From: Meandrina meandrites
Taxonomy: Eukaryota; Cnidaria; Anthozoa; Scleractinia; Meandrinidae
NCBI GenBank assembly: GCA_963693305.1
Contig: OY855906.1
Coordinates: 25,242,289 to 25,306,288, forward strand
Direction: 5' to 3'
Length of the DNA: 64,000 nt
A program made the translations under genes and the position numbers. Below are positions 21,575 through 39,790 of the stretch, piece by piece (position 1 is the first letter of the stretch; each line of letters starts with the position of its first letter). Under the pieces are notes generated by a model. That model was not told the DNA's origin, made no database searches, and was given only the letters and a program-made list of their open reading frames with translations.

Positions 21575-22233
21575 GCTTTAGTCTAATTTCCAGAGGTGAA
21601 TATAAGAATGGAACATTTTGAATGGTGGAAAAGCTCTAGTTTATGACGCTATATTCACCTCGCTAGGAAGTGAATATAGCATTTCAGGGCTTGGTTTCTC
21701 AGCCACGCCACCTTTGCCATCCAGGCAAGTAAACATGGCAACCTTTGCTGAATGAAATTTTCGTTCACTCTGAAGAAATCACTCCAAATCCGGCGTATTC
21801 AGCACAGTTGGAATTTTGAAAATTTTCTGCCAAGGCTTTTGGACCGAAAATATTTTCAAGAGATGATTCCCAAGGCATTAGAATTGATGGTAAACACGGT
21901 GGTTTTGTAGATCGGACGCAGCCATGAGAAAACCAATGCAATCCATTGACCCAAAATTATTCAGTTCTCTTCAGACCAGAGCTGCTCATTTCAAGAGGAT
22001 TTAGACAATTGTTCAGAAGTCGTCAACGACTAATCAAAGGTACTAGATATCTGTCTTTTTCTTAGTGTTTGTTTTGTTCCGTTTTATTGCTTAAACAAAA
22101 GTGTAAATTCTGATTTACGATGAATTAAACTTGTTTACACGTATGCAAGCGAGCATTTGTGTTTGTTGTTTCCGTGTTTTAGTTCTTTATTTTGTAGTTC
22201 TTGATATTCACCTCTGAAAATTAGACTAAAACA
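21575..22233. mobile_element. Element with TIR TTTAGTCTAATTTTCAGAGG
   Basis: The left end (about 21577-21606) and right end (about 22205-22233) are inverted copies of a TTTAGTCTAATTTNCAGAGGTGAATAT theme. No reading frame; probable MITE. Its right end abuts the palindrome described next. Confidence 0.6.
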
Positions 22234-22331
22234 ATTATTCGCCTCAGGCTCAGTGAATCTCGGCGAATATTCCCCTCGACTTCGTCTCGGGGAATGTTCG
22301 CCGAGATTCACTGAGCCTGAGGCGAATGATT
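22230..22331. repeat. Near-perfect palindrome, 44-bp arms
   Basis: The arms carry TTCGCCTCAGGCTCAGTGAA and its complement, separated by a loop of about 13 bp around TCGACTTCGTCTC. It would form a very stable cruciform or hairpin. Position against a TIR suggests it is a terminal part of a mobile element. Confidence 0.9.
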
Positions 22332-22497
22332 GTCATTTATTCCTTCATCTAGTTGTCAAAACTTGATGAATGAATAGATGACCGAATGAAAAAGCTGTTC
22401 AAATTTTAATTATTCACACTCAAACGGTTGGTTGCAAAATTATTCTTATATATCCAAAAGGTCTTGATGACAGCAGACAGGTAACGATTTTAAGAAA

Positions 22498-23029
22498 AAC
22501 GACTAATTTTTTAAATTTACAAGACATGTTTCGACAGAGCTTCTGTCATCTTCAGTTGAATGGTTTACAAAGCATGCAAAGTTGAATAATAAGTAGACGA
22601 AAATGCTAATTAAGACAAATAGTAACAACAGAACGTGAAAATGCGTGAATTAAAAGGATAATTTTAGATTAACATGGTGTAATTGTTGATTGAGGCAAGG
22701 TTGTTCTTTTTGAATATGGATAGCCTCCTTTATCTTGAGTTGAAAGCTGGTAGTGGCGTGATCTAAAATATGAAAACAATCTATTGTACATAAGGCGCGA
22801 CAACGTTCCGAATTTTGAAGATGTTTGAAGATATGAGAGGCCTTATCTACGGCTAAGTGCTCACGTACGCGTGTGAAAAAATGTCGGGTGGTTTCGCCGA
22901 CATAACAGGCATTACAGCCCGCACAGGTAAACTTGTAAACCACACGCGAATGAAGCCCGCCGGGGATAGGGTCTTTCACACCAAAAAAGTTGCTGATCTT
23001 AAAGGAAGAAAAAACTAATTTGATATCTA
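22498..23029 (-). pseudogene. Penelope-like element 3' part: GIY-YIG endonuclease, cut by the Polinton
   Basis: On the minus strand the frame enters from the Polinton left end as LDIKLVFSSFKISN, then GVKDPIPGGLHSRVVYKFTC, CYVGETTRHFFTRVREH and HVNLKLSF before a stop at 22650. The C-x2-C pair followed by YVGET, R and EH is the GIY-YIG endonuclease signature of Penelope-like retroelements. The frame continues without loss of phase from the right flank (39458..39790), so the two pieces are one element interrupted by the Polinton. The 3' untranslated part carries a hammerhead-like motif at 22523..22555. Confidence 0.88.
22523..22555 (-). ncRNA. Hammerhead-ribozyme-like motif at PLE 3' end
   Basis: Minus strand: CTGAAGA core, T, stem GACAG/CTGTC closed by an AAGCT loop, then GAAAC and ATGTC. 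The arrangement CUGANGA - stem II - GAAA is the hammerhead core. One U is unpaired at the base of stem II. Type I hammerheads in Penelope-like elements are established knowledge; activity here is untested. Confidence 0.5.
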
Positions 23030-23032
23030 AGT

Positions 23033-23238
23033 AGTAGTATAGTCGGGACTAATCAAATACCACTTTGGGTGCACCTAAATTTTTCAACTCTTCACGAGAC
23101 TAGTAGTCAGGGACCAAAGCCAAACCATGTTCACATAGCTCGCATGGTTCGGCTTTGATCCCTGACTATAGTCTCGTAAAGAGGGTGAAAAATTTAGGTT
23201 TACCAAAGTAGTATTTGATTAGTCCCGACTATACTACT
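23033..23238. repeat. Imperfect palindrome within left TIR (hairpin-telomere-like)
   Basis: About 97-bp arms that read AGTAGTATAGTCGGGACT... outside and the complement inside, with mismatches spread along the arms and a central CATG...CATG loop around 23128-23148. It would fold into one long hairpin. Confidence 0.9.
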
Positions 23239-23363
23239 TGGGAAAAGAAAGGGAGTAAAAGGAAATGAAAAGGGGGTGAAACCCACGGCGGGGACAAGCA
23301 ATTAGAGAATTGACACCGTGCAGTATAAAAGTTTTTTAATTAATTATTAAAAAATATTTTTTC

Positions 23364-23374
23364 CATAATATACA
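23364..23374 (+). promoter_or_regulatory. TATA-type motif before polB
   Basis: CATAATATACA directly before the ATG; part of the TIR and repeated before the right-end gene. Member of the element-wide start-proximal motif set. Confidence 0.5.
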
Positions 23375-26300
23375 ATGGACGAAATAGACCTCGAATCTCT
23401 CGAAGATGTCGACCTCGAATCTCTCGAACAAGAACTTGCGAGAATAGACCCGGAAGTGTTGCGCTATTTATCGCAATTACTTTCAGAAAACGTTCCTGCG
23501 GTTAAAAAGATAATAAGGAATGCGTTGGAAGAACCAATCCCAGAAGAAACAAAGAAGCGATTAAAACCACCTTTGCAACCAAAACCTTACCAACCAATAG
23601 CACCTCCAAGAAAAAGGAACAGAAGACAAAAAATAATTAGACAGTTTAAACTTCTGAGGGAGTTTGATCCCATCCACCCGCAAAACATAAGAAATGTGGC
23701 AGACTACCAGAATGAGGTCGAGGATAAGTACAAGGACGAAACAACTGAGGGTGAAGAGAAGATAAAAGGTAGGCGTTATATTCGGTGGCGCTTCAAAAAG
23801 AATCTGGAAAGAGACCAAACATCAAAATTCATGGAAAAAATAAGAAAGGACGTAAGAACATCATTTTACATAAGGTACGTTTTTGCATTTAATTTGCGCA
23901 ACATTGAAGACGGAACCTTTCTTACCTTCTACCAAAATGAAAAAGGCTCCCGATGGATAAACAAACTAGAAGACGCGGAAAAATGGCTGAGGGAAAGGGA
24001 GTCTGAACGTTTGGAAGTAGATAGAATCGAAAGACCAGACACAAAATGGATCTTCGACCACTACTATGCTGTTGATGTAAAAGTTGTGCTTGACCGTCAA
24101 CCGCTGATGGGAACAGGCCAATTACCAGACTGGCTGCGAAATCGCGCACACGCAGCGAGAGGACAAGCAATGGTGGCACTGGATACCTATAGAGATAACT
24201 TGTGTTTATGGCGTTGTATTGCTGTGCACAGAGGAGCTAGACCAGATCGAAGTACAGAAGCAGCCCGACGTCTAGCCAAGAATTTTTTCAAGTTCAGGGA
24301 TACGCCGACGGACTGTCCAAAAACCTCGCTGGATGAATTGGAAAAGGTAGAAATGCATCTGAATAAGGGTACTGCTTTCTCAGATTGGCTGGGAATAAGG
24401 GTTTATGTACCAGAGCGTGTAGATGATAAAGAAGTGGTTTGGCATCTCACAAGAAATCCGGCGTCAAAGTTAAAAAACATCATGACAATTGGAATTTTTG
24501 GAGAGCACGCATTTTTAATAAAAGACATTGCAAAGTTGGCAAATCTTTATGCATGCGTCCATTGCAACGCAAGATTCACACAAGCAACCCATCTTCAACG
24601 TCACGCAGATAGATGTGCCCAAGGGAAAACTGAAATAGATTGTCCAGGCGAAAAGGTGGAAGCGCCACAGTCAGCTTACCAGAAAGCGTTTTACCCAAAA
24701 CATAACGCATCGAATGAATCAATTCAGTGGCTAGAGTACGTAGCAAAGCATTGGAATATGACCATTCACCACGCAATGTCAGGCCACGGAGGAGAGCGTT
24801 TGATAGGGAAAAGACCAGTTGATGGATACAACCATAAGAGAAAGTTAGTTCTTCAGTATCACGGATGCTACTTTCACGGCTGTCCAAAATGTTACCCTGA
24901 TCGGGATAAAATAATTGAACGTGGCGACAGAACAAGAGAAGAACTATTCCAAGCGACAATGAGGCGCACAGCTTACCTCAGAAAGGAAGGATACAAAGTA
25001 ATAGAGTGTTGGGCGTGCGAAGTTGGAGACAAATATGTCGAACAACTGCCAAAAACCCAAACAAAAAGTTATCCACATGTGATTTTGTACGATTTAGAGG
25101 CGTACGGAGACAAAAATAAGCGAAAGGATCCGACAGACAATTTAACAATCGAGAATGAGCACGTACCAATCTCGGTGAGCATCGGTGACACCCTTGAAAG
25201 AGAGCCAACCCACATCTGCGAAAGAGACCCCAAAGAGCTGGTCCGTAAGTTTATGGAAGAGTTGGAGAGACGCGGAAAAAACATAAGAACAAAAGTAAGA
25301 GATGAATTTATGCCAGCAGACGTAAACCTGCTTCCAAAAGTTCAGAGGAAAAAAATAGAAGAATGGTGCGACCAGGTCCCAGTCACCGGTTTTAACTCTG
25401 GGACTTACGATCTGAATCTGATCAAAAACTACTTCGCAGAGCACCTTGTGGGCGCAACCAACAAAGTCAGAGTGGCAAAGAACGGAAACAAAATCATGTT
25501 CTTACTAACTTCTGGCTTCCGTTTCCTTGACATAATCAACTACCTTGGCCCGGGAACCAGCTACGAGAAATGGGTAAATGCCTACGACTGCAAGACAACG
25601 AAATCATGGTTCCCATACGAGTGGTTTGACAGACCAGAAAAGCTGGATTATCCAGGATTACCGGATTATATGGATTGGTATTCAAAGTTGAAAGGAGACT
25701 TTGTACTGAAACTGTCAGAATGGAAAGCCTGCAAAAAGGCGTTTCGAGAAGAGGGAATGAAAACCTTCGAAGACTGGGTGCGTTACTACAATAATCTCGA
25801 TGTGGCACCCGGACTTGAGGCTCTCGAAAAAATGAAAAACTTCTACACTGAGAAGGGAATCGACATAATGAAAGACGCAGTCAGCATCCCAGGTGTGAGC
25901 TTACACTACCTGCTAAGGGGAGCTATTGAACGCAAAGCGGTTCTTTACAGCCCAAGCAAAGAAGCATATGATATGTTGAAAGCAGCAGTTGTTGGAGGGC
26001 CTAGCCTCGTTTTCACAAGATACCACGAAGTTGGAAAAACAAGAATAAGGTCGCATCAAATAGCAGGTGGGGTTTCACCCCACACCCTCCAGGGTATTCC
26101 AAAACTTTGTCAAAACATCCTCGGATATGACGCCAACGCCCTGTATCTCTCAACCATGCTCAGAGAAATGCCCTGTGGAAAAGAAAAAGTTGTACACTAC
26201 ACAGGAGAATACCAAACAGACGGGGCACCAGTACTAACGCACAGACTCAAAGAAGGAAGCTGGTTCGGATATGCAGAAATAGATATAGAGATTCCAAATC

Positions 26301-27385
26301 ACTTACACCAAAAGTTTGAGGAAATGTGTCCGTTCTTCCACAACAAAGTGGTGCCAGCCAAAGCTGTCCCCGAGCATATGCTGAAATACTTGCGTGATAC
26401 AGGAAGAAAACGAGGAGAAGATAAGAAACTCATGGGAACGTTGTCAGCGCAGAGGATGCTTGTGTACGCCCCTCTACTACTCTGGTATGTGAATCACGGG
26501 GCAGTTATCAAAAGGGTTTATCGTACAATTGACTACACACCGGCAAAGATCTTCCCCTGGTTCGTGGAACAAGTCACGGTGGCTCGCCGGACAGGAGATA
26601 AGGAAAAAAGCAAAGCACTGCTGGCTGATATATTCAAACTGTTGGGAAACAGCGGGTATGGGAAGCTAATAGAAGCCTTGGAGCGTCAAACAAACGTAAT
26701 CTACACCAAAGATGAGAAGGTAGTCGACAGAGCCTTGCGAAGCGCGTATTTTTCAGATCTTGACGAGATTGGGGAGGCTTATGAGTTAGAAAGTCGGAAG
26801 CCACGGATCACAATCAGAAGACCGTTTCAGATTGGAATAGCTGTATATCAGCTGGCAAAGCTGCGTATGTTGGAATTCTATTACGACTTCCTTGACAGAT
26901 ACTTTGATAGAAAAGATTTCGAGCTGATACAGATGGACACTGACAGCAACTACTTGGCAATCTCAGGTAAGAAACTCGAGGACATTGTGCGACCAGAGAT
27001 GAAAGCAGAATTCGAGGCACAAAAAGAGAATTGGTTGGCTTGGGACAAGTGGAGCGGGAGAACGCCGGGTCTGTTTAAGATGGAGTGCGAGGGGGAGCGG
27101 ATGATAGCGCTCTGCTCAAAATGCTATTACATTGATGACCGGGGAGATAAAAAGAAGTTAAGCGCAAAAGGTATGTCGAAGAAGCAAAACGATATAACCT
27201 GGCAACGTTTCAAGGCAGCGCTGGAAGGAAGCAAGGATGTGGCAACAAACAGAGGTTTTCGAATGCGGGATGGGAATATAGTAACTTACGAGCAGGAGAA
27301 GCTGGGGTTGAGTGCATACTATGACAAACGATGGGTACTACCCGACGGGATACACACCGAACCAATCGAATATCACAGTGGGTAG
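23375..27385 (+). CDS. polB: Protein-primed family B DNA polymerase with accessory N-terminal domains
   Basis: Replicates the element from its ends by protein priming (family knowledge). 1336 residues. The exonuclease carries DLE (D573, E575), FNSGTYD (673-679) and YNNLD (805-809). The polymerase carries YDANALY (D919), KLLGNSGYG (K1088-G1096) and MDTDS (D1188, D1190), then a downstream CSKCYY. Before the exonuclease lie: an acidic N terminus with a repeated DLESLE; a DNLCLWRCIAVH stretch (274-285) faintly resembling the OTU protease Cys motif; a C2HC finger (C394, C397, H410, C414); and a segment with VDGY, LQYHGCYFHGCPKC (493-506) and GYKVIECW, resembling Vsr-type PD-(D/E)XK nucleases. The last two resemblances are inference. 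The first Met fits, 3 bp after a TATA-type motif in the TIR. Residues 898-908 are encoded by a palindrome of the element-wide repeat set. Confidence 0.97.
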   Translation: MDEIDLESLEDVDLESLEQELARIDPEVLRYLSQLLSENVPAVKKIIRNALEEPIPEETKKRLKPPLQPKPYQPIAPPRKRNRRQKIIRQFKLLREFDPIHPQNIRNVADYQNEVEDKYKDETTEGEEKIKGRRYIRWRFKKNLERDQTSKFMEKIRKDVRTSFYIRYVFAFNLRNIEDGTFLTFYQNEKGSRWINKLEDAEKWLRERESERLEVDRIERPDTKWIFDHYYAVDVKVVLDRQPLMGTGQLPDWLRNRAHAARGQAMVALDTYRDNLCLWRCIAVHRGARPDRSTEAARRLAKNFFKFRDTPTDCPKTSLDELEKVEMHLNKGTAFSDWLGIRVYVPERVDDKEVVWHLTRNPASKLKNIMTIGIFGEHAFLIKDIAKLANLYACVHCNARFTQATHLQRHADRCAQGKTEIDCPGEKVEAPQSAYQKAFYPKHNASNESIQWLEYVAKHWNMTIHHAMSGHGGERLIGKRPVDGYNHKRKLVLQYHGCYFHGCPKCYPDRDKIIERGDRTREELFQATMRRTAYLRKEGYKVIECWACEVGDKYVEQLPKTQTKSYPHVILYDLEAYGDKNKRKDPTDNLTIENEHVPISVSIGDTLEREPTHICERDPKELVRKFMEELERRGKNIRTKVRDEFMPADVNLLPKVQRKKIEEWCDQVPVTGFNSGTYDLNLIKNYFAEHLVGATNKVRVAKNGNKIMFLLTSGFRFLDIINYLGPGTSYEKWVNAYDCKTTKSWFPYEWFDRPEKLDYPGLPDYMDWYSKLKGDFVLKLSEWKACKKAFREEGMKTFEDWVRYYNNLDVAPGLEALEKMKNFYTEKGIDIMKDAVSIPGVSLHYLLRGAIERKAVLYSPSKEAYDMLKAAVVGGPSLVFTRYHEVGKTRIRSHQIAGGVSPHTLQGIPKLCQNILGYDANALYLSTMLREMPCGKEKVVHYTGEYQTDGAPVLTHRLKEGSWFGYAEIDIEIPNHLHQKFEEMCPFFHNKVVPAKAVPEHMLKYLRDTGRKRGEDKKLMGTLSAQRMLVYAPLLLWYVNHGAVIKRVYRTIDYTPAKIFPWFVEQVTVARRTGDKEKSKALLADIFKLLGNSGYGKLIEALERQTNVIYTKDEKVVDRALRSAYFSDLDEIGEAYELESRKPRITIRRPFQIGIAVYQLAKLRMLEFYYDFLDRYFDRKDFELIQMDTDSNYLAISGKKLEDIVRPEMKAEFEAQKENWLAWDKWSGRTPGLFKMECEGERMIALCSKCYYIDDRGDKKKLSAKGMSKKQNDITWQRFKAALEGSKDVATNRGFRMRDGNIVTYEQEKLGLSAYYDKRWVLPDGIHTEPIEYHSG
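26067..26083. repeat. In-frame GTGGGG palindrome inside polB
   Basis: GTGGGGTTTCACCCCAC followed by ACCCTCCAGGG. It encodes part of AGGVSPHTLQG just before polymerase motif A. It shares its outer arms with the intergenic palindromes of this element. Confidence 0.7.
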
Positions 27386-27406
27386 CAACTCAGTTGCTGA
27401 TACCCC
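27382..27406. repeat. GCAACTNAGTTGC palindrome between polB and integrase
   Basis: GGGTAGCAACTCAGTTGCT, then GATACCC: nested inverted repeat overlapping the polB stop codon, in the gap between convergent polB and integrase. Possible transcript end or mobile palindrome. Confidence 0.75.
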
Positions 27407-27426
27407 GCACCCCAAGGGGTAAGGAT

Positions 27427-28416
27427 TTAGTTCAAGTTAGTCGGAGGTAATTGTGTGTTTGGAGGCACAACAAGCAGTTCTTCACGTACAAAACCACGTT
27501 TGGGCCCGTCATGTAAATAGTAGAGAACTGGCTGATCCGGTTTGGTAAAAGAACGTTCAAGGTTGTAAACTTTTAAAGACCAGATTGGATCAGTGGCTCT
27601 TTTCGTCCCACCTTCAAGCTCACCAGGTTGGTACAAATATCGAACCAAAACTATGGAGGGGAGCTTTTTTTCATTTTCTCCAACAGGTCGCAAATATTTG
27701 GTTGCTGGTTCTGCATAAACATTTTTTTTCCTGATTGCGGCAGCAGGTTTCATACCAATCAACCGTGTGACTTGGTTGTTCAGAGCAGAAACAACTTTGG
27801 GAAGCCTTTTTACCCACTCTGTGGACCGCTGACCCTCATTGCTACGCATTTCAACCGCGTACTGATACCCGAACAAGCGCTCAGCCAGGGTACGGTTGAA
27901 ACGTTCAACAATGGCTTGGTCTCTGTGAATTTCAGGGTGCCCTCGTCTGATAGAAGTTTTGTGATTTTCCATTTCTTTTGTAACAGCGCCCATAAATTCA
28001 CGCCCAGGATCAACCTGCAGAATCTGTGGCCACTTCAGAGGTCCGCGTGTATAAATTGTCTTAAAAGCTTTGGCAACCATATCAGAGTTTTTAGAGGTTA
28101 AAGGCTGAGCTTCTTTGAATCTGCTGGCAACATCAACAACGGTAAGCGCGTATTTGTAAGTGCTACGGCCCACTTTGTCGTGCGGCAGAAAAAGAAGATC
28201 TGCCTGATGCACTTTGTTGGGTGTAGGCACGTCGAATTTTGGGCGAGGAATGTAGCGCGGTGCGGGGAGGTAGATCTGCCAGAGCGCTTGTTTGAACAAC
28301 CATTCTTTAGCAACAACTTCAGGTACCTTTGCAGCAACCGCTAATTTTTTAATGGCGGAGATACCTTTCCAGTAACCTTGTGGACTGTAGTAACGCCGCT
28401 CTAATTTTCTGTCCAT
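27427..28416 (-). CDS. int: Polinton integrase (retroviral DD(35)E type)
   Basis: Inserts the element into host DNA (family knowledge). 329 residues. The RVE core shows HQADLLFLP (D73), LQVDPGREF (D136) and AIVERFNRT (E171). The spacing of 34 residues between the second Asp and the Glu is the DD(35)E arrangement. The C-terminal part has RATDPIWS, PVLYYL and FVREELLVVP, a small beta domain usual in Polinton integrases; a chromodomain is not obvious. The N-terminal HHCC zinc finger is not evident in the first 60 residues. Convergent with polB and divergent from the 28445 gene, sharing a 28-bp start region rich in TA. Confidence 0.95.
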   Translation of the reverse strand: MDRKLERRYYSPQGYWKGISAIKKLAVAAKVPEVVAKEWLFKQALWQIYLPAPRYIPRPKFDVPTPNKVHQADLLFLPHDKVGRSTYKYALTVVDVASRFKEAQPLTSKNSDMVAKAFKTIYTRGPLKWPQILQVDPGREFMGAVTKEMENHKTSIRRGHPEIHRDQAIVERFNRTLAERLFGYQYAVEMRSNEGQRSTEWVKRLPKVVSALNNQVTRLIGMKPAAAIRKKNVYAEPATKYLRPVGENEKKLPSIVLVRYLYQPGELEGGTKRATDPIWSLKVYNLERSFTKPDQPVLYYLHDGPKRGFVREELLVVPPNTQLPPTNLN

Positions 28417-28437
28417 TTAAATAATTATGCGCGGGCA

Positions 28438-28443
28438 TATATA
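28438..28443. promoter_or_regulatory. TATATA motif in the divergent int/ORF gap
   Basis: TATATA in GCATATATACATGG, just before the preferred start of the plus-strand gene and 21 bp from the integrase ATG. It could serve both. Confidence 0.45.
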
Positions 28444-28444
28444 C

Positions 28445-28996
28445 ATGGCCACAAAACCTTACCCCCACAGGGAACAACTAAAAAAAGAGCTTATCAAAAT
28501 GTTGCTGAAAAAGCAGGAAGCGTTAATAAAAGAAATCAAGCCAGAAAAAGATCTTGACGACCGTTACGACCTCGAAGGGGTGTGGAGTTTACCCCACGAA
28601 GAGATGAGCCACCCTCCCAAACCAAAATTATGGTATTTAATTGCAGTACTAAAAAAAGTCGGCATTTCTTTAGAACAGGTCGGTGACGAAATGGGGTTGA
28701 CCTTTTTGGGTAATGTCATTTGGCAGTTCAAGCGGGTAAATCTCGGATCGTTTAACTACGTTTGTTTTTTACACAACTATTTTCAAAAGGTCTCAACAAG
28801 AGATTGGCCGGCGAAAAATGCAATACTGAAAAAGCTCACGAAAAGATTGCCGAAGATGCGGCAAACCAGAAATAAAGCGGATAAAAGTTTCAACGAATGG
28901 TGGAGAGAAGAAATGTTAAATCAAATTATTTATTACAGGTATCAGGTATCAGTAGCTGAGTTGCTAACCACCGCGATTAAACAGCAGTTGTCTTAG
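28445..28996 (+). CDS. Polinton protein of unknown function (183 aa from second Met)
   Basis: An open frame also extends to an ATG at 28427, but the Met at 28445 follows a TATATA motif like other starts in this element, so I prefer it. The protein is Lys-rich with predicted helices: KKELIKMLLKKQEALIKE at the N terminus, a central hydrophobic part LWYLIAVLKKVGISLEQVG, and a basic C-terminal half KKLTKRLPKMRQTRNK. No Cys/His metal cluster or membrane span is seen. I do not recognise the family. It is divergent from the integrase and its 3' end overlaps that of the next gene by 20 bp. Near the C terminus (28945-28969) it contains a degenerate copy of the element's palindrome, which codes for VSVAELLTT. 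Confidence 0.75.
   Translation: MATKPYPHREQLKKELIKMLLKKQEALIKEIKPEKDLDDRYDLEGVWSLPHEEMSHPPKPKLWYLIAVLKKVGISLEQVGDEMGLTFLGNVIWQFKRVNLGSFNYVCFLHNYFQKVSTRDWPAKNAILKKLTKRLPKMRQTRNKADKSFNEWWREEMLNQIIYYRYQVSVAELLTTAIKQQLS
28945..28969. repeat. Degenerate GCAACTNAGTTGC-type palindrome in a coding region
   Basis: GGTATCAGTAGCTGAGTTGC with the tail TAACC: same order as the copy at 30420 but with changes in the left half of the core. It lies in frame near a C terminus. Confidence 0.6.
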
Positions 28997-29501
28997 ATGT
29001 TCTGTTAACCTTTACCCCCACTCCACCGTCAGTGTGGTTTGAAAAACGCAGTTTTGTCTTTGCAGTTGTAAAGGTGTTGTACTTTTTCACAATATCTTGG
29101 TACTCACCGTCAGAGATTACACCATCTTCAAGAGCGGTTGATATGAGAGAGTTGATCGTGCTCAGCGTAGCTTCAGCCAGGGTCTGTATTTTTTCGTGAT
29201 TTTTCGCTTTCCGCAGGAAAAATTTGATGGTGACCATGCAGGAGGTTGACACCAATGAAAACAAGGTGGCAGTTGCGATTAAAGGTCCCCCAACAGCAAC
29301 GCCAACCGCAGAAAGAGAAGCGGCGAGCCCAGAGCCGGTAAGAATGGTAGCGACTCCGCCTGTTATTGCACATACCGTTTGGCAACGTGTGTGCCACCGT
29401 TTGAATTTGGCTGAGGTTTCGTAGTAGTGCACCAACTGGTTTTCCAAATTCGTCTTTATCAATTCTATTTCAGCCCGCCTGAATTTTGATGCAGAATCCA
29501 T
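28977..29501 (-). CDS. Polinton small membrane protein, unknown function
   Basis: 174 residues. An N-terminal helix with conserved-looking aromatic and charged residues (LVHYYETSAKFKRWH) is followed by two hydrophobic segments, about 43-80 (AITGGVATILTGSGLAASLS, then GVAVGG) and 81-95 (ATLFSLVSTSCMV). Then comes a soluble helical part with ALEDGVISDGEYQDIVKKY. The two-span plus helix layout resembles SLATT-type or other small viral membrane proteins, but I cannot assign a family. The C-terminal DGVISDGEY looks like an EF-hand-shaped turn. The start is supported by TATATA 5 bp upstream. It overlaps the convergent gene's 3' end by 20 bp. Confidence 0.8.
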   Translation of the reverse strand: MDSASKFRRAEIELIKTNLENQLVHYYETSAKFKRWHTRCQTVCAITGGVATILTGSGLAASLSAVGVAVGGPLIATATLFSLVSTSCMVTIKFFLRKAKNHEKIQTLAEATLSTINSLISTALEDGVISDGEYQDIVKKYNTFTTAKTKLRFSNHTDGGVGVKVNRTSKTTAV

Positions 29502-29505
29502 TTCC

Positions 29506-29511
29506 TATATA
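29506..29511 (-). promoter_or_regulatory. TATATA motif before the membrane-protein gene
   Basis: ACATATATAGG read on the minus strand, five bases before the ATG at 29501. Confidence 0.5.
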
Positions 29512-29532
29512 TGTGTTTAAAAAATGTGTAAT

Positions 29533-30396
29533 CTAATCGCAATATTGGTTATGCCATTTTCCATTTTTATATACAATCCGATTACATGGACCAGTTGTAT
29601 TTTTAGGGTGTGTCCAAAACTTTTTGCTGAACAGACCGGTTTTCGTGTTAAAGGCACCTTTTGCGATGTCACCACTCCAATACTTTTTAAACAAATCCTT
29701 ATCACCACCTGTGATAGCCATGATTGCAGCAGCCACATCTTGAGACTGTTGAAAGCCCGGAATTTTTTCGCCGATCTTTTTATTGATCGTTTCACCGACA
29801 CCCAAACCCACCTTTTGCTTCGAGCTGATTGCGTTGCGCGCCGCGGCGTGACCCCATTGCCGTTTGTTTTTGGGAATAGCGTCAAGCGCCTTCACCATTT
29901 TTTTGTCTGCATCATGCTTGCAGCCTTTCTCATTTTTCTTGCCTGCACAGACGGCATAATCAACGTCATGCTGCATTGCAACTGCGTCCGTGGCGCCTGT
30001 GGGTTGCTGGTATATCTTCAAGATCTTTCCCGTCTTGGGGTCGTAAGAAAGCTGTTTTTCAAGAGGATTGTACGGTCCTGTGTAGTTATGACCAGGAAGC
30101 GTCCACCCCTTTTTTGGCTTAGGCAGCTTGCCGATGGCTTTATGCAAATCAAAAGCCCCACCACGGGGTCGTTCATAAAGAGGGTTTGTTGGGTCATCTA
30201 CTCTATTACCCGCATAAATTCTCATATCATAATTACCACCACGTTGGGTACCCCCACTAATAAATCGTGTCTTGGTAATGCCACAACTTGCGCATTTTAC
30301 TTTTAACATTCTTCTACCATTTTTTGTGGTAGTGTTTTTTTCACTTCCCGGTACGTTGGGTGTGAAACGCTTTTCCTTCACGCAGTATACCTCCAT
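29533..30396 (-). CDS. Virion-type phospholipase A2 protein with N-terminal zinc-ribbon-like domain
   Basis: 287 residues. Residues 1-46 (YCVKEKRFTPN, KCASCGITKTRF; C5, C35, C38) resemble the small DUF5679-type metal-binding domain but lack the fourth Cys. Residues about 97-165 match a parvovirus-VP1-type phospholipase A2: LPGHNYTGPYN as the calcium loop, then AMQHDVDYAVC with the His-Asp pair (H143, D144) and further acidic residues at CKHDAD. Such domains act on membranes during entry of non-enveloped virions (family knowledge), so a virion location is inferred. The C-terminal third has an ISSKQKVGLG stretch and GIGE-like turns. Its N terminus is paralogous to the next gene at 30434..30985, and both have the same TTATATAAG start motif. 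Confidence 0.85.
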   Translation of the reverse strand: MEVYCVKEKRFTPNVPGSEKNTTTKNGRRMLKVKCASCGITKTRFISGGTQRGGNYDMRIYAGNRVDDPTNPLYERPRGGAFDLHKAIGKLPKPKKGWTLPGHNYTGPYNPLEKQLSYDPKTGKILKIYQQPTGATDAVAMQHDVDYAVCAGKKNEKGCKHDADKKMVKALDAIPKNKRQWGHAAARNAISSKQKVGLGVGETINKKIGEKIPGFQQSQDVAAAIMAITGGDKDLFKKYWSGDIAKGAFNTKTGLFSKKFWTHPKNTTGPCNRIVYKNGKWHNQYCD

Positions 30397-30397
30397 C

Positions 30398-30405
30398 TTA
30401 TATAA
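30398..30405 (-). promoter_or_regulatory. TATATAAG motif before the PLA2 gene
   Basis: ATTATATAAG immediately before ATG on the minus strand; identical to the motif before 30985. Confidence 0.55.
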
Positions 30406-30419
30406 TTAAAGAAAATTCT

Positions 30420-30447
30420 CGGGTATCAGCAACTTAGTTGCTACCCG
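30420..30447. repeat. GCAACTNAGTTGC palindrome at a gene end
   Basis: CGGGTATCAGCAACTTAGTT, then GCTACCCG: outer arms CGGGT/ACCCG and inner arms AGCAACT/AGTTGCT, perfect apart from an ATC bulge. It overlaps the stop of the 30434 gene and is inverted relative to the copies at 27382 and 31014. Confidence 0.8.
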
Positions 30448-30985
30448 CTGTGTGACACCCGCCTTTCAACTTATTTCCCGGTATCATATCTTTTGGTCTT
30501 AATCTGTTTGAGGCTTTAGTCAACAAATCCCCAGACAAAGCATCAATTGTGTAATTAACAGCTTTTTTCGCGATTGGTTTGGCTTTATTGGCTATCTTCT
30601 TCTGATACTCTGGTTGTCTTAAAAACTCGCTTGCAAAGTATCTTCCTTGTTTCACACCTTGCTTTGCTAAATAAGGAACTCCGTACTCAAAGAAAGCTTC
30701 AGCTGCTGTATTTCCAACTGTATCAAGAACCCCACCTCCGAACATTCTTTTTTCAGCGCGAGCAAGTTCTTCTCTCTTCTTTTTGGGTAAACCACTTCTG
30801 GTCCACTTAAATATTGGATCTAAAATATTACCTCCTTCGTGGGCACTGACAAAACGTGTCTTGGTAATGCCGCAGCTAGCACATTTTACTTTAAGCAACC
30901 TTTTACCATTTCTTGCGGTTGCAAATGTTTCACTTCCCACCACATTAGGTGTGAAGCGCTTTTCTTTCTCACAGTAAACATCCAT
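30434..30985 (-). CDS. Paralogue of the PLA2 gene's N-terminal domain fused to a basic helical tail
   Basis: 183 residues. The first 46 residues (YCEKEKRFTPN, LLKVKCASCGITKTRFVS) match the N terminus of the PLA2 protein next door, so the domain was duplicated. The remainder has no PLA2 motif. It is basic and helical (PKKKREELARAEKRMFGGG; KKIANKAKPIAKKAVNYTID), which would suit a minor core or internal virion protein; that role is inference. The last residues (KGGCHTAGSN) come from the palindrome at 30420. The shared domain could be a targeting or packaging tag. The start is fixed by TTATATAAG immediately upstream. Confidence 0.8.
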   Translation of the reverse strand: MDVYCEKEKRFTPNVVGSETFATARNGKRLLKVKCASCGITKTRFVSAHEGGNILDPIFKWTRSGLPKKKREELARAEKRMFGGGVLDTVGNTAAEAFFEYGVPYLAKQGVKQGRYFASEFLRQPEYQKKIANKAKPIAKKAVNYTIDALSGDLLTKASNRLRPKDMIPGNKLKGGCHTAGSN

Positions 30986-30986
30986 C

Positions 30987-30994
30987 TTATATAA
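30987..30994 (-). promoter_or_regulatory. TATATAAG motif before the 30985 gene
   Basis: ATTATATAAG directly before the ATG on the minus strand. Confidence 0.55.
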
Positions 30995-31013
30995 TTAACC
31001 AAAAATTCATGGG

Positions 31014-31046
31014 GTGTGGGGAGCAACTCAGTTGCTGATACCCCAC
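31014..31046. repeat. GTGGGG-GCAACTNAGTTGC-CCCCAC palindrome
   Basis: GTGGGGAGCAACTCAGTTGC followed by TGATACCCCAC: a two-tier hairpin with a GATA bulge, the best preserved copy. It overlaps the protease stop codon. Confidence 0.85.
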
Positions 31047-31504
31047 TGTGTAAAATAATCCTTCACCACAGCCTCGTTGGCGCGCGTATTTTCAGAAAAC
31101 ATTCTCAAAATATCTCGAAACGACCGCCCTTTGTTACGTTCGTTCAGGAAAAGCAGACAGTAGTAGCCGCAGCGCACGCTGAATTCCCACTGAAGCTGGT
31201 TGTCATTCCGAAGAAAGGTCTGTTTGCCCTCAAGAATCAACTCAATTTCCCATTCTGCGGGCGGAGGTAAACCGAAAGAGTCAAAGTACTCCCGTCCACC
31301 CCAGCAGCAAACCCAATGGGTGCCTGGCCCTCCAAGATCATCCATGTTGATTATACAAGGGGAGTGGTTTTTCACGTGGATCTCGTCTCTCGCAAATATG
31401 CCTTTGATGGGGATTTTCAAGTATTGGCACCACCGCCGCAAGTCAAAATCGGTTAAGGGGACATCAACGAAGGTAGGCTTTTTTTTGGTCGCCCCAAGAA
31501 CCAA
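31028..31504 (-). CDS. pro: Adenain-like cysteine protease (virion maturation)
   Basis: 158 residues, close to the usual length of this family. Catalytic residues in order: GTHWVCCW (H63), EYFDSFG (D75), NQLQ (Q105 as oxyanion residue) and VRCGYYC (nucleophile C112, seven residues after Q105 as in adenovirus protease). The early LRRWCQYLKIPIKGIFARDE is also typical of this family. It presumably cleaves capsid and core precursors in assembling particles. The start overlaps the end of the upstream gene (31464..31838) by 41 bp and has no TATA-type motif of its own, so the two are probably expressed from one transcript. The stop lies inside the palindrome at 31014. Confidence 0.9.
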   Translation of the reverse strand: MVLGATKKKPTFVDVPLTDFDLRRWCQYLKIPIKGIFARDEIHVKNHSPCIINMDDLGGPGTHWVCCWGGREYFDSFGLPPPAEWEIELILEGKQTFLRNDNQLQWEFSVRCGYYCLLFLNERNKGRSFRDILRMFSENTRANEAVVKDYFTQWGISN

Positions 31505-31838
31505 TAAATGGTGGAGGACGCCGGAAATATGGAGGAGGGTTGATGCGCATTCCCTTTCCTCCTGTTGGGGGTTTTACCCGCATGCCGGCCCCACTCGCCA
31601 TCTTGCGCACATGTCTGATTTGTGTCTTGCTCATGTCTATGTCCACGCCCGTTTTGTTTTTGATAGCGCGCTGTATTTTTTTGATCTGCCTGGCGGTCAA
31701 GTGCAAAGTGTCGCTGCCCCCGGTTATGGCCTCGTTTTTAAATCTGAGCGTAACTGCTTCTCCTGGCCCAAAGGCCCGCGCGAGGCTTACTTTTTGCCCG
31801 TCTGAAAGTGAAATCTTGTGCGGATAGTAAGTCGTCAT
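31464..31838 (-). CDS. Small basic Polinton protein (core-like)
   Basis: 124 residues. An N-terminal beta-like part (ISLSDGQKVSLARAF, EAVTLRFKNEAI) precedes LHLTARQIKKIQRAIKNKTG, then VDIDMSKTQIRHVRKMASGA, and a Gly/Pro/Arg-rich C terminus (GMRVKPPTGGKGMRINPPP). The order LTxxQ...KI...A...G-G-V-x-I-x-(M/L)-S is a recurrent theme of cnidarian Polinton proteins as I recall them; no enzymatic motif is seen. The net positive charge suggests a DNA-binding core component. It precedes the protease and overlaps it. A GTATAAAG motif sits directly before the ATG. Confidence 0.75.
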   Translation of the reverse strand: MTTYYPHKISLSDGQKVSLARAFGPGEAVTLRFKNEAITGGSDTLHLTARQIKKIQRAIKNKTGVDIDMSKTQIRHVRKMASGAGMRVKPPTGGKGMRINPPPYFRRPPPFIGSWGDQKKAYLR

Positions 31839-31871
31839 CTTTATACTTATTTCAAAAAATTATTTTACACA

Positions 31872-31886
31872 GTGGGGGTACCCCAC
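31872..31886. repeat. Short GTGGGGGTACCCCAC palindrome, intergenic
   Basis: Perfect 15-bp palindrome followed by ACCCCCAGG, lacking the GCAACT core. It lies between the MCP stop and the next gene's start. Confidence 0.65.
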
Positions 31887-31899
31887 ACCCCCAGGAGTT

Positions 31900-33159
31900 T
31901 TACACCATCACCAGCTCATTACCCACCTGCCTGAGAACAAGTTCGGACTCGTACAAAATTCCTGCATAAATGGTGTAGTCTTGCGCGTTGGCCGCCTCGT
32001 TGAGCCTGTAGTGGAAAACCATCTGCTTCGGGTCGTTGGTCATGTTATCCTTGTTTTCGCGTAAGTCAAAATAGACTATTGGGTACAGCGTCTCGAAGTT
32101 GTTGGGCTGAAGCTGCACACCGGTGTTGTAGTCGTTTTTGCGGTACCGGTAGTTCATTAAGTCATTAAGAATGCGCAGTTTGAAGTTTTCGTCGTAGTCC
32201 AGCTCCGGATAGTACTGCGAAGAGCCGTACTGCAGCCGGCAGGTCGCCAGCTTGGCTGAATTGTCTCCGTCAATGTCAAAGGTGTCAAAGAAGTAGGGGT
32301 TTTGAGTCAAGGCGTTCTTCTTCCTTGACTGTTGAATGAAAATGAAAACATGTTTTGCGTCTTTTAGACCAGGATTTATCTGCCACGAACCGAAAGCGTC
32401 ACGCCGACTGGGGCTGGGCTGGATCATTTCATTCAGGTACGTCCATTTCTGAGGTTTCAAAAAGTTTTCGTTTGCGAGCTTCTGTCCTTCGCTGGTAAAA
32501 CGCAGCATTGGAACCCACAGCTCAAGGTTTCTCACTACTACCCTACGATCTGTGCCATCGTTTTGCCAAATCAGCTCTGCATCCGGTTCAATTTCAAACT
32601 CCAGCTGCATGGGGGGGAGAAGCTTGTCACTCAGCTCCTCGAAGAATGAGTACCTGTTAAGCGGTATGAGGGTTTCAACCGTGAGGCCGGCGTGGGCAAG
32701 CAAGCCCCTTTGTCTGATTCCTTGGTTAGTGGCAGCGACGGCCGTTACATTGCTATTATCCGTGTCCAGATACCAAAACTGGTTTTTCGCCGCGCTCCTC
32801 GCAAAGTCATCAGAAAAATCCAACAAGTTTTTGATGAATATTAACTTGTGAATGTTTTCTACGTTGTAAATGTTTTTGCCCGATGATTTTACCACAAGTT
32901 TGTTTATCAGTGAAAATGAGCCGTTAATGGGCGCTGACCGGACGTCCCCTGCAACTGCTGCGCCATCCGCGGTTGCCTCGAAAGTGAAATCAGCCCGGAA
33001 GTAGGCGTTATACCAGTCAAACCAGTTGTCTCGGTCGGTGAGTGTGAATTTATAGTTTGTTTTTACCTGGTGCTGATTGTTACCCGGGATAGTGATCGGT
33101 TTGTCTAACCCGATACGAACATACTCTGTTTTTTCCAAATGCCTGTGGCTTCTGAACAT
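31900..33159 (-). CDS. mcp: Major capsid protein (double jelly-roll, hexon-like)
   Basis: 419 residues, the largest of the minus-strand virion cluster. Features that fit Polinton capsid proteins: an N-terminal part ending KPITIPGNNQHQVKTNYKF; LINKLVVKSSGKNIY; IKNLLDFSDDFARS with AKNQFWYLDTD; the conserved-looking RYSFFEELSDKLLPPMQLEF followed by LIWQND; then WVPMLRF and a Tyr-rich second half with YRYRKNDYNTG. The sequence is beta-rich without membrane spans. It would form the pseudo-hexameric capsomer. The assignment rests on recognition of this sequence type and on position next to protease, penton and core genes; no fold can be computed here. The start follows GATATATAGG 10 bp upstream. 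Confidence 0.85.
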   Translation of the reverse strand: MFRSHRHLEKTEYVRIGLDKPITIPGNNQHQVKTNYKFTLTDRDNWFDWYNAYFRADFTFEATADGAAVAGDVRSAPINGSFSLINKLVVKSSGKNIYNVENIHKLIFIKNLLDFSDDFARSAAKNQFWYLDTDNSNVTAVAATNQGIRQRGLLAHAGLTVETLIPLNRYSFFEELSDKLLPPMQLEFEIEPDAELIWQNDGTDRRVVVRNLELWVPMLRFTSEGQKLANENFLKPQKWTYLNEMIQPSPSRRDAFGSWQINPGLKDAKHVFIFIQQSRKKNALTQNPYFFDTFDIDGDNSAKLATCRLQYGSSQYYPELDYDENFKLRILNDLMNYRYRKNDYNTGVQLQPNNFETLYPIVYFDLRENKDNMTNDPKQMVFHYRLNEAANAQDYTIYAGILYESELVLRQVGNELVMV

Positions 33160-33168
33160 CTTGCGTCC

Positions 33169-33176
33169 TATATATC
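33169..33176 (-). promoter_or_regulatory. TATATA motif before the MCP gene
   Basis: AGATATATAGG on the minus strand, about 10 bp before the ATG at 33159. Confidence 0.5.
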
Positions 33177-33192
33177 TTTTAAAAAAATTATT

Positions 33193-33675: not shown

Positions 33676-33694
33676 TATTATACTTATGTGTAAA

Positions 33695-34474: not shown

Positions 34475-34479
34475 GTTGC

Positions 34480-34489
34480 TTATATAATA
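34480..34489 (-). promoter_or_regulatory. TATATAA motif before the penton gene
   Basis: ATATTATATAAGC on the minus strand, 5 bp before ATG. It overlaps the stop region of the upstream 62-aa gene. Confidence 0.5.
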
Positions 34490-34668: not shown

Positions 34669-34689
34669 TTCCTTTTCTCTTTCGGGTTC

Positions 34690-35425: not shown

Positions 35426-36058
35426 ATGAAAATTCCAAATTACGACCCCAGTTTGACTACAAAAAGTAATTACAAGCAAGGCCACCCTTGTATGCCAGCA
35501 AATACCTTTCGGATGCTTATTTGCGGGCCGAGCAACTCTGGTAAAACAAATATTCTCATGCATATGCTTTACAGGCTGTTGGTCTACGACAAAATTTACC
35601 TTTGCACAAAGAACCTACATCAAGACAAGTACCAATATATGATTGATGATTTCGATAAAAGAGTCAATCCTGCGGCTGGGTATAATGTTATTGAAGGCGC
35701 CAACGATGTTATTCCTCTTGAGATGCTGCCCACTGACAACCAAAAAATTGTAATCTTCGATGATATGGTTTGTGAAAAAAACCAAAACGACATTATCGAT
35801 TATTTTATGAACGGGCGGCAGCGCAATTGCAGCGTCATTTATCTTTCTCAAAGCTACTTCAAGACCCCCAAAAACATCCGAGATAATTGCACCCACTTTT
35901 GCATTTTCAACTTTCTTCCCAGAGAAAATAACCGTATTGCTGATGAATTGGGAATTGACAGAGAGCTGCTTGAAAGGGCTACCGATGCTAAATATTCTTT
36001 TTTATACTACGACAAACCAAAAAAAACCACACTCAAAAATTTTGATGAAAATATATAG
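35426..36058 (+). CDS. DNA-packaging ATPase (A32/FtsK-HerA type)
   Basis: 210 residues, a typical length for Polinton ATPases. Walker A is GPSNSGKT (34-41). Walker B is KIVIFDDM (107-114) with the double Asp. SVIYLSQSYF (136-145) is the motif III/sensor strand found in A32-like packaging ATPases. Later NRIADELGID and ATDAKYSFLYY complete the family pattern. It would pump element DNA into capsids. The start follows TATATATAA by 9 bp. The fibre gene begins two bases after its stop, and the fibre's own TATATAG motif overlaps this stop codon. Confidence 0.93.
   Translation: MKIPNYDPSLTTKSNYKQGHPCMPANTFRMLICGPSNSGKTNILMHMLYRLLVYDKIYLCTKNLHQDKYQYMIDDFDKRVNPAAGYNVIEGANDVIPLEMLPTDNQKIVIFDDMVCEKNQNDIIDYFMNGRQRNCSVIYLSQSYFKTPKNIRDNCTHFCIFNFLPRENNRIADELGIDRELLERATDAKYSFLYYDKPKKTTLKNFDENI
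36052..36057 (+). promoter_or_regulatory. TATATA motif overlapping the ATPase stop, before the fibre gene
   Basis: AAAATATATAGAG; the TAG is the ATPase stop codon and the fibre ATG follows 3-4 bp later. Confidence 0.5.
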
Positions 36059-38689: not shown

Positions 38690-39112
38690 TCACATTGGGT
38701 CTAAACCCCTTAACTTACAAGGGGTCCAAGCATGTTCAAGATCATCTTCGCCTATCTCAATACAGCGTCTGGGGTTGCTGTATCCGTCTATGCCTGGGAA
38801 AGCGAAATGATAGATGGAGTCTTTTCGCACACACGGAACACATATCTCAGTAGCGCAGCAATTTTTATGTACTAAACAAAACATAACTTTCACAAGCCTT
38901 TGCCGTTTATGACAAAAAGGGGTTTTCTGCAAATCTTGGTGTACTTTGTCCCAGCCAAGATCTTTTCGCTGTCTAAGTCTAAACCAGATTATCTGGTTTA
39001 ACCTTGGTTTGGTTTTTAATCTCTCGTTTTGCTTCCTCTCAAAACAATCCCAATAGAATTCCAAATTTTGTTCTTCCAAAGTCTGTCCAATGTTTTGCTC
39101 GACAGTTGCCAT
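38690..39112 (-). CDS. Cys-rich Polinton protein, paralogue 2 (right-end gene)
   Basis: 140 residues: an acidic N-terminal half (EQNIGQTLEEQNLEFYWDCF), then LRQRKDLGWDKVHQDLQKTP, FCHKRQRLVKVMFC and CCATEICVPCVRKDS, and a C-terminal DDLEHAWTPCK. It has one copy of the LRQRK-LGW unit where its neighbour has two. Its start codon and upstream ATACA tract lie inside the right TIR, so its promoter is the same sequence that drives polB at the other end. Function unknown. Confidence 0.75.
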   Translation of the reverse strand: MATVEQNIGQTLEEQNLEFYWDCFERKQNERLKTKPRLNQIIWFRLRQRKDLGWDKVHQDLQKTPFCHKRQRLVKVMFCLVHKNCCATEICVPCVRKDSIYHFAFPGIDGYSNPRRCIEIGEDDLEHAWTPCKLRGLDPM

Positions 39113-39122
39113 TGTATATTAT
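39112..39122 (-). promoter_or_regulatory. TATA-type motif before the right-end gene
   Basis: CATAATATACA on the minus strand directly before the ATG; identical to the polB motif because both lie in the TIR. Confidence 0.5.
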
Positions 39123-39248
39123 GGAAAAAATATTTTTTAATAATTAATTGAAAAACTTTTATACTGCACGGTGTCAATTCTCTAATTGCTTGTCCCCGCC
39201 GTGGGTTTCACCCCCTTTTCATTTCCTTTTACTCCCTTTCTTTTCCCA

Positions 39249-39454
39249 AGTAGTATAGTCGGGACTTATCAAATACTACTTTGGTAAACCTAAATTTTTC
39301 ACCCTCTTTACGAGACTATAGTCAGGGATCAAAGCCGAACCATGCGAGCTATGTGAGCATGGTTTGGCTTTGGTCCCTGACTACTAGTCTCGTGAAGAGT
39401 TGAAAAATTTAGGTGCACCCAAAGTGGTATTTGATTAGTCCCGACTATACTACT
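39249..39454. repeat. Imperfect palindrome within right TIR
   Basis: Same 206-bp palindrome as on the left. Its central loop is in the same orientation relative to the element as the left copy (one base differs), so the two ends are not seen in flip and flop states. Confidence 0.9.
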
Positions 39455-39457
39455 ACT

Positions 39458-39790
39458 TACAATAGCGCTTGATTAAGTGTCGAATCTTTTTTTGAGTGAC
39501 AACAGAAAAATGGCCTATGTACGGCAGCTTAAAGTAAAATGTGGGCGAAGTGGTAGGGAGGGAGACTCGGGGACAATGATTGCTATGGGTCCCAGTTATG
39601 TAACGGTTAACCACTTTTTCAATTACATGGGCAGGGAAAAGGTTCTTTTTGAGAATTTCAGTAAGTTTGGTTATGTCCTCGTGTAACCCCAACCAGGTGT
39701 TATTGATTTTGTAGGTCAATCCCGACCTTAAGTTAAGTAAACCTGAACTTAGAAGCCTTTTCACTGTAGTCACCGCCCACCGCCCAGACC
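39458..39790 (-). pseudogene. Penelope-like element RT thumb region, cut by the Polinton
   Basis: On the minus strand the frame reads GLTYKINNTWLGLHEDITKL, AHVIEKVVNRYITG, FKLPYIGHFSVVTQKKIRHL and IKRYC, then meets the Polinton terminus. This is the segment between the RT palm and the endonuclease in Penelope-like elements. It continues in phase as LDIKLVFSS at 23029. At its other end (about 39790) it switches abruptly to an inverted PLE 3' copy, so the catalytic RT part is absent. Confidence 0.85.

What the first reader, a model, noticed from the sequence alone, without database searches (positions are those of the whole stretch)
23033..23238. Polinton ends are long hairpin palindromes, like parvovirus telomeres
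Each TIR contains a 206-bp imperfect palindrome with arms of about 97 bp, mismatched at scattered positions, around a loop bounded by CATG. The same structure is at 39249..39454. Polintons are expected to replicate by protein priming, which needs no hairpin. A self-folding terminus suggests another role: integrase recognition, a covalently closed or foldback replication form, or a packaging signal. The scattered mismatches show that the fold is tolerated or maintained despite drift.
Basis: partly seen in the sequence, partly recalled or inferred. Interest (0 to 1): 0.85.

Follow-up and report, generated by a model that had tools for sequence, protein, structure and literature searches.

The report
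Polinton hairpin ends match their polymerase
Virus-like Polinton elements in what is probably a coral genome end in long DNA hairpins, and the bases at the hairpin tips change in step with the base-reading residues of a zinc finger in the element's own DNA polymerase, so the tips are most likely where that polymerase binds to start copying.

Summary
Both ends of the Polinton at 23033-39454 carry a 206-bp imperfect palindrome (DNA fold z = -19). It is terminal: 20 of 22 paired copies in the same genome have an exact 5-bp target duplication against it. It is shared: 40 of 40 TIR-found ends have it, 18 of 20 PolB-found ends have it whole (2 truncated), and 9 of 9 ends read from a second subfamily have it with a diverged stem.

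Parvovirus-type hairpin transfer is not supported: orientation is the same in 40 of 40, and no Rep domain was found. The outer 28 bp vary between copies but stay paired (99.7% of cells). Their bases follow the contact residues of a PolB zinc finger by the standard code: triplet 14-16 fits in 26 of 27 elements; the best other register fits 8. In new elements 53 of 54 arms fit.

Best reading: the tip is PolB's protein-primed origin, present as an inverted pair that can refold into a duplex origin on single strands. Recognition is strongly indicated; the hairpin's use is inferred.

The parts
23033..23238 (+). left terminal palindrome (outer arm about 97 nt, 13-nt loop 23130-23142, inner arm about 97 nt)
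39249..39454 (-). right terminal palindrome, inverted copy of the left one, 2 differences in 206
23028..23378 (+). left TIR as matched (351 bp, including 5 bp outside the tip that also match on the right)
39109..39459 (-). right TIR as matched
23033..23060 (+). left outer tip (28 bp): AGTAGT repeats, then the inferred PolB recognition core; zinc-finger triplet at 23046-23048
23211..23238 (-). left inner tip, inverted copy of the outer tip (triplet 23225-23223)
39249..39276 (+). right inner tip (triplet 39262-39264)
39427..39454 (-). right outer tip (triplet 39441-39439)
23375..27385 (+). PolB, 1336 aa, protein-primed family B polymerase type
   Evidence: relative P0002, 97% identical over residues 560-1336, matches PF03175; the window protein itself did not
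24554..24616 (+). zinc finger of PolB (residues 394-414, CVHCNARFTQATHLQRHADRC); recognition positions -1 to +6 are residues 403-409 (24581-24601)
24143..24169 (+). PolB residues 257-265, second segment whose residues track tip positions 21 and 23
27427..28416 (-). rve integrase; not among the best predictors of tip bases
31900..33159 (-). double jelly-roll major capsid protein (model)
35426..36058 (+). A32-type packaging ATPase

Best explanation
Each end of this Polinton is an origin of protein-primed replication built as a terminal hairpin. The tip has AGTAGT repeats (a start for jump-back priming) followed by a PolB recognition core at bases 11-24, read in part by a zinc finger in PolB's N-terminal half (bases 14-17) and by residues 257-265 (bases 21-23). 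The same origin is repeated, inverted, at the base of the inner arm. Inferred step: when a strand is displaced during replication, its 3' end folds on the inner arm and the two arms re-form a perfect duplex origin on the single strand itself, doing in cis what an adenovirus panhandle does with both ends. This accounts for why perfect pairing is kept over the footprint (1-28) and mismatches are tolerated deeper. Shown here: terminal hairpin, its conservation in two subfamilies, arm-to-arm and DNA-to-finger covariation. Inferred: physical binding, use of the hairpin in replication, and the copying that keeps the four tips identical.
For: Terminal position: exact 5-bp duplication against the palindrome in 9 of 11 pairs, with 0 of 110 mismatched pairings as control, and in 11 of 11 more pairs. 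Arms: 28 tip pairs 99.7% paired, 10 with double changes, 85 double-change cells against 24 in shuffles. In 27 elements, 10 of 10 shared-variable tip columns are concerted, against 0 of 20 deeper ones; arm-arm divergence is 0.5% against 13% between copies. Finger: base 16 against residue 403, A-Q 17 and G-K 10; base 15 against 406, G-H 12, A-N 8, T-S 6, G-Q 1; invariant G14 with invariant R409, 27 of 27. Register scan: 26 of 27 at register 14 on both arms, next best 8 of 27 among 380. All 7 polymorphic tip columns are fully predicted by a PolB residue on each arm; of deeper columns 0 of 4 (outer) and 0 of 14 (inner). Four arms in 22 elements: 263 of 264 bases fit. New elements found through PolB: inner 18 of 18, outer 17 of 18. 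Second subfamily: 9 of 9 elements, both arms, including QACS with GTA. Across subfamilies 31 of 64 predicted stem pairs show double changes in 8 sequences. Not plain co-inheritance: on trees of other parts of PolB and of integrase, tip base 15 needs 12 steps, as in shuffles. In 106 PolB homologues that cover the finger, -1 is only Q or K and +3 only N, S or H.
Against: No binding or replication was measured. The finger is one short CCHC-type finger: Pfam zf-C2H2 E 4e-4 on a 59-aa fragment and 0.05 on the whole protein, both under the curated cut-off. The AlphaFold model of PolB is poor (mean pLDDT 45), so the contacts cannot be modelled. One element has Q at +3 with G; one outer tip (N02) misses. 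Base 11 is weak: one permutation in 60 on the inner arm did as well as residues 786 and 798, and base 11 follows the PolB trees (1 and 2 steps, shuffled mean 4.8), so co-inheritance may explain it. For base 23 (4 minor copies) the permutations reached 0.83 and 0.73. Base 16 needs 6 steps against 8.2-8.5 in shuffles, so some shared descent is there. The deeper stem also covaries somewhat more than shuffles (6 of 60 pairs, 19 cells against 5.8), so the contrast with the tip is of degree; and one of five measures, the number of pair types, does not exceed the shuffles. Covariation of both arms with PolB could reflect two separate binding sites rather than a folded hairpin.
Confidence: 0.72

Rival explanations
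1. Two separate PolB sites per end: PolB binds the inner and outer tips as inverted duplex sites (for example as a dimer), and the ability to fold is a by-product.
For: Inner tips match the finger as well as outer ones (132 of 132 against 131 of 132 bases). PolB residues predict both arms equally.
Against: The deeper stem, outside the PolB-linked bases, is also kept complementary across two subfamilies although its sequence changed. Two sites alone do not need a 97-nt stem.
Confidence: 0.25
2. Self-templated end repair: the 3' end folds back and is re-copied from the inner arm, so the outer tip is regenerated each cycle; identity of the arms is a product of copying rather than of selection.
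For: Fully concerted change is confined to the outermost 28 bp; the 2 one-sided and 3 unpaired cells there, out of 1008, are each in one sequence only. A chimeric element (PolB side L049, far side L015) has four identical tips although its inner arms differ between the ends.
Against: It does not by itself explain agreement with the polymerase's finger, and copying would have to stop exactly at AGTAGT. It may act together with the best explanation.
Confidence: 0.4
3. Parvovirus-like rolling-hairpin telomere: hairpin transfer by a nickase.
For: Terminal palindromes at both ends with an internal loop.
Against: 40 of 40 ends in one orientation; no HUH Rep or S3 helicase domain in the 16 element ORFs scanned; AGT repeats and PolB point to protein priming. 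A fixed orientation alone would not exclude it, as one parvovirus end is reported in the flip form only (PMC1185569, passages).
Confidence: 0.05
4. Integrase recognition signal: the arms are kept alike because the integrase binds both.
For: The hairpin lies at the terminus and the rve gene is present.
Against: No integrase column is among the five best predictors of any tip base (29 variable integrase columns against 214 of PolB); tip distance hardly follows integrase distance (Spearman 0.10).
Confidence: 0.05
5. A separate fold-back element inserted into an ancestral TIR.
For: The palindrome begins with AGTAGTATAG and ends with its complement.
Against: It lies exactly at the element end with target duplications against it, occurs in both subfamilies with diverged stems, and its tip matches PolB. 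Free-standing copies were not searched for.
Confidence: 0.03

Closest known systems
Polinton/Maverick elements (vertebrate Mavericks, Barreat and Katzourakis 2021, PMC8097293, passages seen)
   Same: Gene set, long TIRs, AGT-type end motifs proposed for jump-back protein priming.
   Different: 5-bp rather than 6-bp target duplications; each TIR is a terminal hairpin; a text search of that paper for 'palindrom' had 0 hits.
Adenovirus core origin bound by the polymerase-terminal protein complex (recalled, no paper read)
   Same: Terminal short repeats for jumping back, with a polymerase recognition site just inside; displaced strands re-form a duplex origin.
   Different: Adenovirus re-forms the origin by pairing the two ends (panhandle); here each end could do so alone.
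Parvovirus hairpin telomeres (PMC1185569, passages seen; otherwise recalled)
   Same: Terminal palindromes that fold on themselves.
   Different: No Rep/NS1 domain found, no flip/flop, and a protein-priming polymerase instead.
Bidnaviruses (Krupovic and Koonin 2014, PMC4061559, passages seen)
   Same: Polinton-derived PolB and terminal repeats in an element of mixed Polinton and parvovirus ancestry.
   Different: That paper states that bidnavirus terminal repeats do not form parvovirus-type hairpins.

Membership tests
Polinton/Maverick | protein-primed family B polymerase | tested here: met
   The window protein gave no PF03175 match, but P0002, 97% identical over residues 560-1336, matches at 1.4e-17.
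Polinton/Maverick | retrovirus-like rve integrase | tested here: met
   PF00665 E 3.6e-7, 30.8 bits, just under the curated cut-off of 32.6.
Polinton/Maverick | A32-type packaging ATPase | tested here: met
   PF04665 E 4.4e-15.
Polinton/Maverick | double jelly-roll major capsid protein | tested here: met
Polinton/Maverick | adenovirus-type maturation protease | tested here: inconclusive
   Candidate ORF 31028-31504 minus has no Pfam match listed at E up to 10.
Polinton/Maverick | TIRs and short target-site duplications | tested here: met
   TIR 351 bp; exact 5-bp duplications in 20 of 22 pairs. Vertebrate Mavericks have 6 bp, so the length differs. The window copy itself has none.
Parvovirus rolling-hairpin replicon | terminal palindrome that folds into a hairpin | tested here: met
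Parvovirus rolling-hairpin replicon | HUH nickase/Rep (NS1) with S3 helicase | tested here: not met
   No such Pfam domain at E 0.01 in the 16 ORFs of the element that were scanned.
Parvovirus rolling-hairpin replicon | flip and flop orientations of the terminal palindrome | tested here: not met
   40 of 40 ends score higher in one orientation.
Parvovirus rolling-hairpin replicon | single-stranded packaged genome | not testable with these tools
   No virions or episomal reads are available.
Protein-primed origin (adenovirus type) | short terminal repeats at the priming site | tested here: met
   AGTAGT at the outer tip of each end that was read whole.
Protein-primed origin (adenovirus type) | polymerase recognises a sequence just inside the terminus | tested here: met
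   Met by covariation only; binding not measured.
Protein-primed origin (adenovirus type) | terminal protein covalently on the 5' end | not testable with these tools
   Needs biochemistry.

The most novel reading that the evidence does not exclude
These Polintons replicate by hairpin-based protein priming, a mode between adenovirus and parvovirus: each displaced strand refolds its own duplex origin, and sibling families living in one genome keep separate origin-polymerase pairs by switching two or three contact residues of one zinc finger together with all four hairpin tips, which keeps each polymerase for its own element.
Probability: 0.5. Interest if true: 0.93.

Novelty: new variant of a known kind. 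Interest (0 to 1): 0.88.

Why it matters
I found no report of how Polinton polymerases find their origins in the listings and passages seen (ten searches; only asked about zinc fingers, and most subscription papers are not held). Here a natural experiment in one genome gives a readable code: the finger predicts the tip. It makes origin recognition, the role of hairpin ends, and the separation of sibling elements directly testable, and gives Polintons a terminal structure that had been a mark of parvoviruses, which bears on the bidnavirus link.

Tried and rejected
Relatives in viral contigs: four scans found none, so no other species' ends could be read. Flip/flop: rejected. Overall gene distance as predictor of tip type: weak (Spearman 0.26 PolB N-terminal, 0.25 PolB C-terminal, 0.10 integrase, -0.04 MCP with 78 pairs only); single residues carry the signal. 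AlphaFold of PolB 1-1200: mean pLDDT 45, not used. A weak repeat of the tip motif deeper in the arm (inner 4 and outer 10 of 1000 shuffles as good) is left as a hint. PDB search with PolB gave nothing. Elements with finger QSNN (predicting GAA) could not be located: the search did not complete. Whether still more distant Polintons, or TIRs without the palindrome, exist is not tested: one search scored 40 of 639 first-look candidates, 35 of 2009, 34 of 1998, 34 of 1992.

Rows dropped: one search used 27 elements, one end each, out of 40 ends; the dropped rows were 11 second ends, one segmental duplicate (L029) and one identical copy (L015). Searches used the window and 26 elements whose PolB side was fetched; for two of these (E_L022, E_L033) the tip was read from the far end because the PolB-side tip is lost or cut. 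Of 17 partner regions, 12 had a TIR match; L052 was truncated and left out of the pairs. In one search, 2 of 20 ends (N03, N08) had lost the outer arm and were not scored. From the second subfamily 9 elements were read, of 34 and 36 listed matches. Gaps in the PolB alignment counted as states.

Full report
What is there. The window holds a 16.4-kb Polinton (23033-39454) with PolB, rve integrase, a PLA2-domain gene, a double jelly-roll capsid protein, an A32 ATPase and a collagen-repeat gene. It lies in a 551-Mb genome, probably of a stony coral: the named homologues of PolB and capsid protein are from Oculina patagonica; the host itself is not named. It folds far better than shuffled sequence (z -19.45).

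It is terminal and shared. A search of the genome with the TIR scored 40 of 639 first-look candidates; all 40 have the palindrome, but the query holds it, so this set is selected for it. I fetched them with flanks and looked for missing partner ends. In 22 elements with both ends, 20 have an exact 5-bp duplication directly against AGTAGT (9 of 11; 11 of 11); 0 of 110 mismatched pairings do. The exceptions are the window copy and L031/L034. A search through PolB, which does not select for palindromes, gave 20 further elements: 18 have the whole palindrome, 2 are cut and keep only the inner part. A second subfamily, whose PolB is about 73-76% identical, has 34 listed PolB matches in the genome; 9 of 9 ends read have a terminal palindrome with a diverged stem. 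In an alignment of 8 palindromes from the two subfamilies 31 of 64 predicted stem pairs show double changes, and the 28 tip pairs are intact in 8 of 8.

It is not a parvovirus telomere in mechanism. All 40 ends score higher in the forward orientation, and the asymmetric positions (outer C, inner T at column 30; outer GGTGCACC, inner GGTAAACC; columns 63 and 73) keep their sides in 38 to 40 of 40 copies. No Rep or S3 helicase domain was found in the 16 element ORFs scanned.

The tip behaves differently from the rest. In 27 elements taken once each, 10 of 10 shared-variable columns among the outermost 29 change together in both arms, while 0 of 20 deeper columns do so fully (12 of the 20 show some shared change; Fisher p 3e-8). 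Within a copy the two tips differ by 0.5%, between copies by 13%; deeper, arms differ by 11-18% within a copy and by 2-12% between copies. Pair counts agree: 28 tip pairs are 99.7% paired with 85 double-change cells (24 in shuffles), 2 one-sided and 3 unpaired cells of 1008; one of the five measures, the number of pair types, does not exceed shuffles. The deeper 60 pairs have 19 double-change cells (5.8 in shuffles), so they covary too, but less. In 16 of 22 elements all four tips are identical; 6 have one tip that differs by one base. One element is a chimera, its PolB side 76% identical to the window and its far side 97%, with inner arms that differ between the ends; yet its four tips are identical.

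The tip follows the polymerase. I fetched PolB and integrase regions of 26 more elements and asked which residues predict tip bases. Residues 404-406 of PolB lead for bases 15-18 taken together (403 is tenth there but alone fully predicts base 16), and residues 259-265 for bases 21-24. Residues 394-414 form a CCHC-type zinc finger (zf-C2H2 E 4e-4 on the fragment, under the curated cut-off), and 403, 405, 406 and 409 are its positions -1, +2, +3 and +6. By the textbook recognition code (recalled, not from a call) +6, +3 and -1 read three successive bases 5' to 3'. Observed: R409 with G14, both invariant, 27 of 27; 406 with base 15, H-G 12, N-A 8, S-T 6, Q-G 1; 403 with base 16, Q-A 17, K-G 10; 405 with base 17, T-C 9, C-T 11, V-T 5, F-T 1, G-G 1. 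Sliding the predicted triplet over 380 registers on both arms and strands gives 26 of 27 at register 14 on each arm and at most 8 of 27 elsewhere. Every polymorphic tip column (7 of 7 on each arm; columns 16 and 18 divide the elements alike) is fully predicted by at least one PolB residue; of deeper polymorphic columns 0 of 4 (outer) and 0 of 14 (inner) are. Base 11 with residues 786 and 798 is the weakest: one of 60 permutations did as well on the inner arm, and it follows the PolB trees. Over four arms of 22 elements 263 of 264 bases at 14-16 fit.

It is not simple co-inheritance. On trees of PolB 430-1336, PolB 1-240 and integrase, base 16 needs 6 steps (shuffled means 8.2-8.5) and base 15 needs 12 (shuffled means about 12). 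The association peaks at the finger, not near the left end. Among 106 homologues that cover the finger (of the 120 listed; some are from this same genome, as P0114 is found in it at 100%), -1 is only Q or K, +3 only N, S or H, +6 R in 103 and K in 3, while the structural residues hardly vary.

Tests on elements not used to find the rule. In the 18 scorable PolB-found elements the code predicts the triplet in 18 of 18 inner and 17 of 18 outer tips. In the second subfamily 8 of 8 elements with KASN or KACN fingers have GAG on both arms, and one with QACS has GTA on both arms, as predicted. Together 53 of 54 arms.

Reading. The hairpin tip is most likely the recognition site of the element's own protein-priming polymerase. 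Two copies per end, inverted, can pair to a duplex origin when the strand is single. That near-perfect pairing is confined to the span with the PolB-linked bases fits this. My confidence is about 0.9 that PolB reads the tip and about 0.5 that the folded hairpin is the working form. How the four tips are kept identical (end re-copying, pairing of the two ends, or selection against mismatched ends) is not settled.

Literature. Ten searches listed no paper whose title or abstract start reports hairpin TIRs in Polintons or a PolB finger that reads them; beyond listings I saw passages of six papers. The founding Polinton and Maverick papers were not seen.

Noticed in passing
window 22650-23032 and 39455-39923: The Polinton sits inside a Penelope-like ORF on the minus strand. 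Joining the flanks with no base removed (or with 3 removed) keeps one reading frame into the GIY-YIG domain, so this copy shows no target duplication, unlike 20 of 22 paired elements.
   Followed up: partly
window 22491-22987 and 39793-40289: 497-bp arms, 99% complementary, of GIY-YIG (Penelope-like) sequence flank the Polinton outside.
   Followed up: partly
G000:C1:43921730-43938041 (L015, L049, L089): Chimeric Polinton: PolB side 76% and far side 97% identical to the window, with a 5-bp duplication and four identical tips.
   Followed up: partly
window 23101-23117: A weak second copy of the tip motif deeper in the arm (inner 4 and outer 10 of 1000 shuffles as good), perhaps an older terminus.
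   Followed up: partly
window 23130-23142 and A5 columns 98-113: A loop core resembling GCTCAC...GCTCGC is kept between subfamilies although the surrounding stem changed, except in L155; it may be a further binding site.
   Followed up: no
G000, PolB searches: About 2000 first-look candidates per PolB query (not a count of copies), and 34 listed second-subfamily matches without stops: probably a large and recent expansion.
   Followed up: no
window 30255-30415 and 30844-31004: Two adjacent genes share a DUF5679-like start (161 nt, 80%); one also has a PLA2 domain.
   Followed up: no
window 36061-37680: Collagen-repeat ORF next to the packaging ATPase, perhaps a fibre or spike protein.
   Followed up: no
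window 22231-22333: Another near-perfect hairpin (50-nt arms, 92%, 3-nt loop) just outside the element.
   Followed up: no
PolB residues 786 and 798 (window 25730-25732, 25766-25768): They track tip base 11 in 27 elements; shared descent is not excluded there.
   Followed up: no
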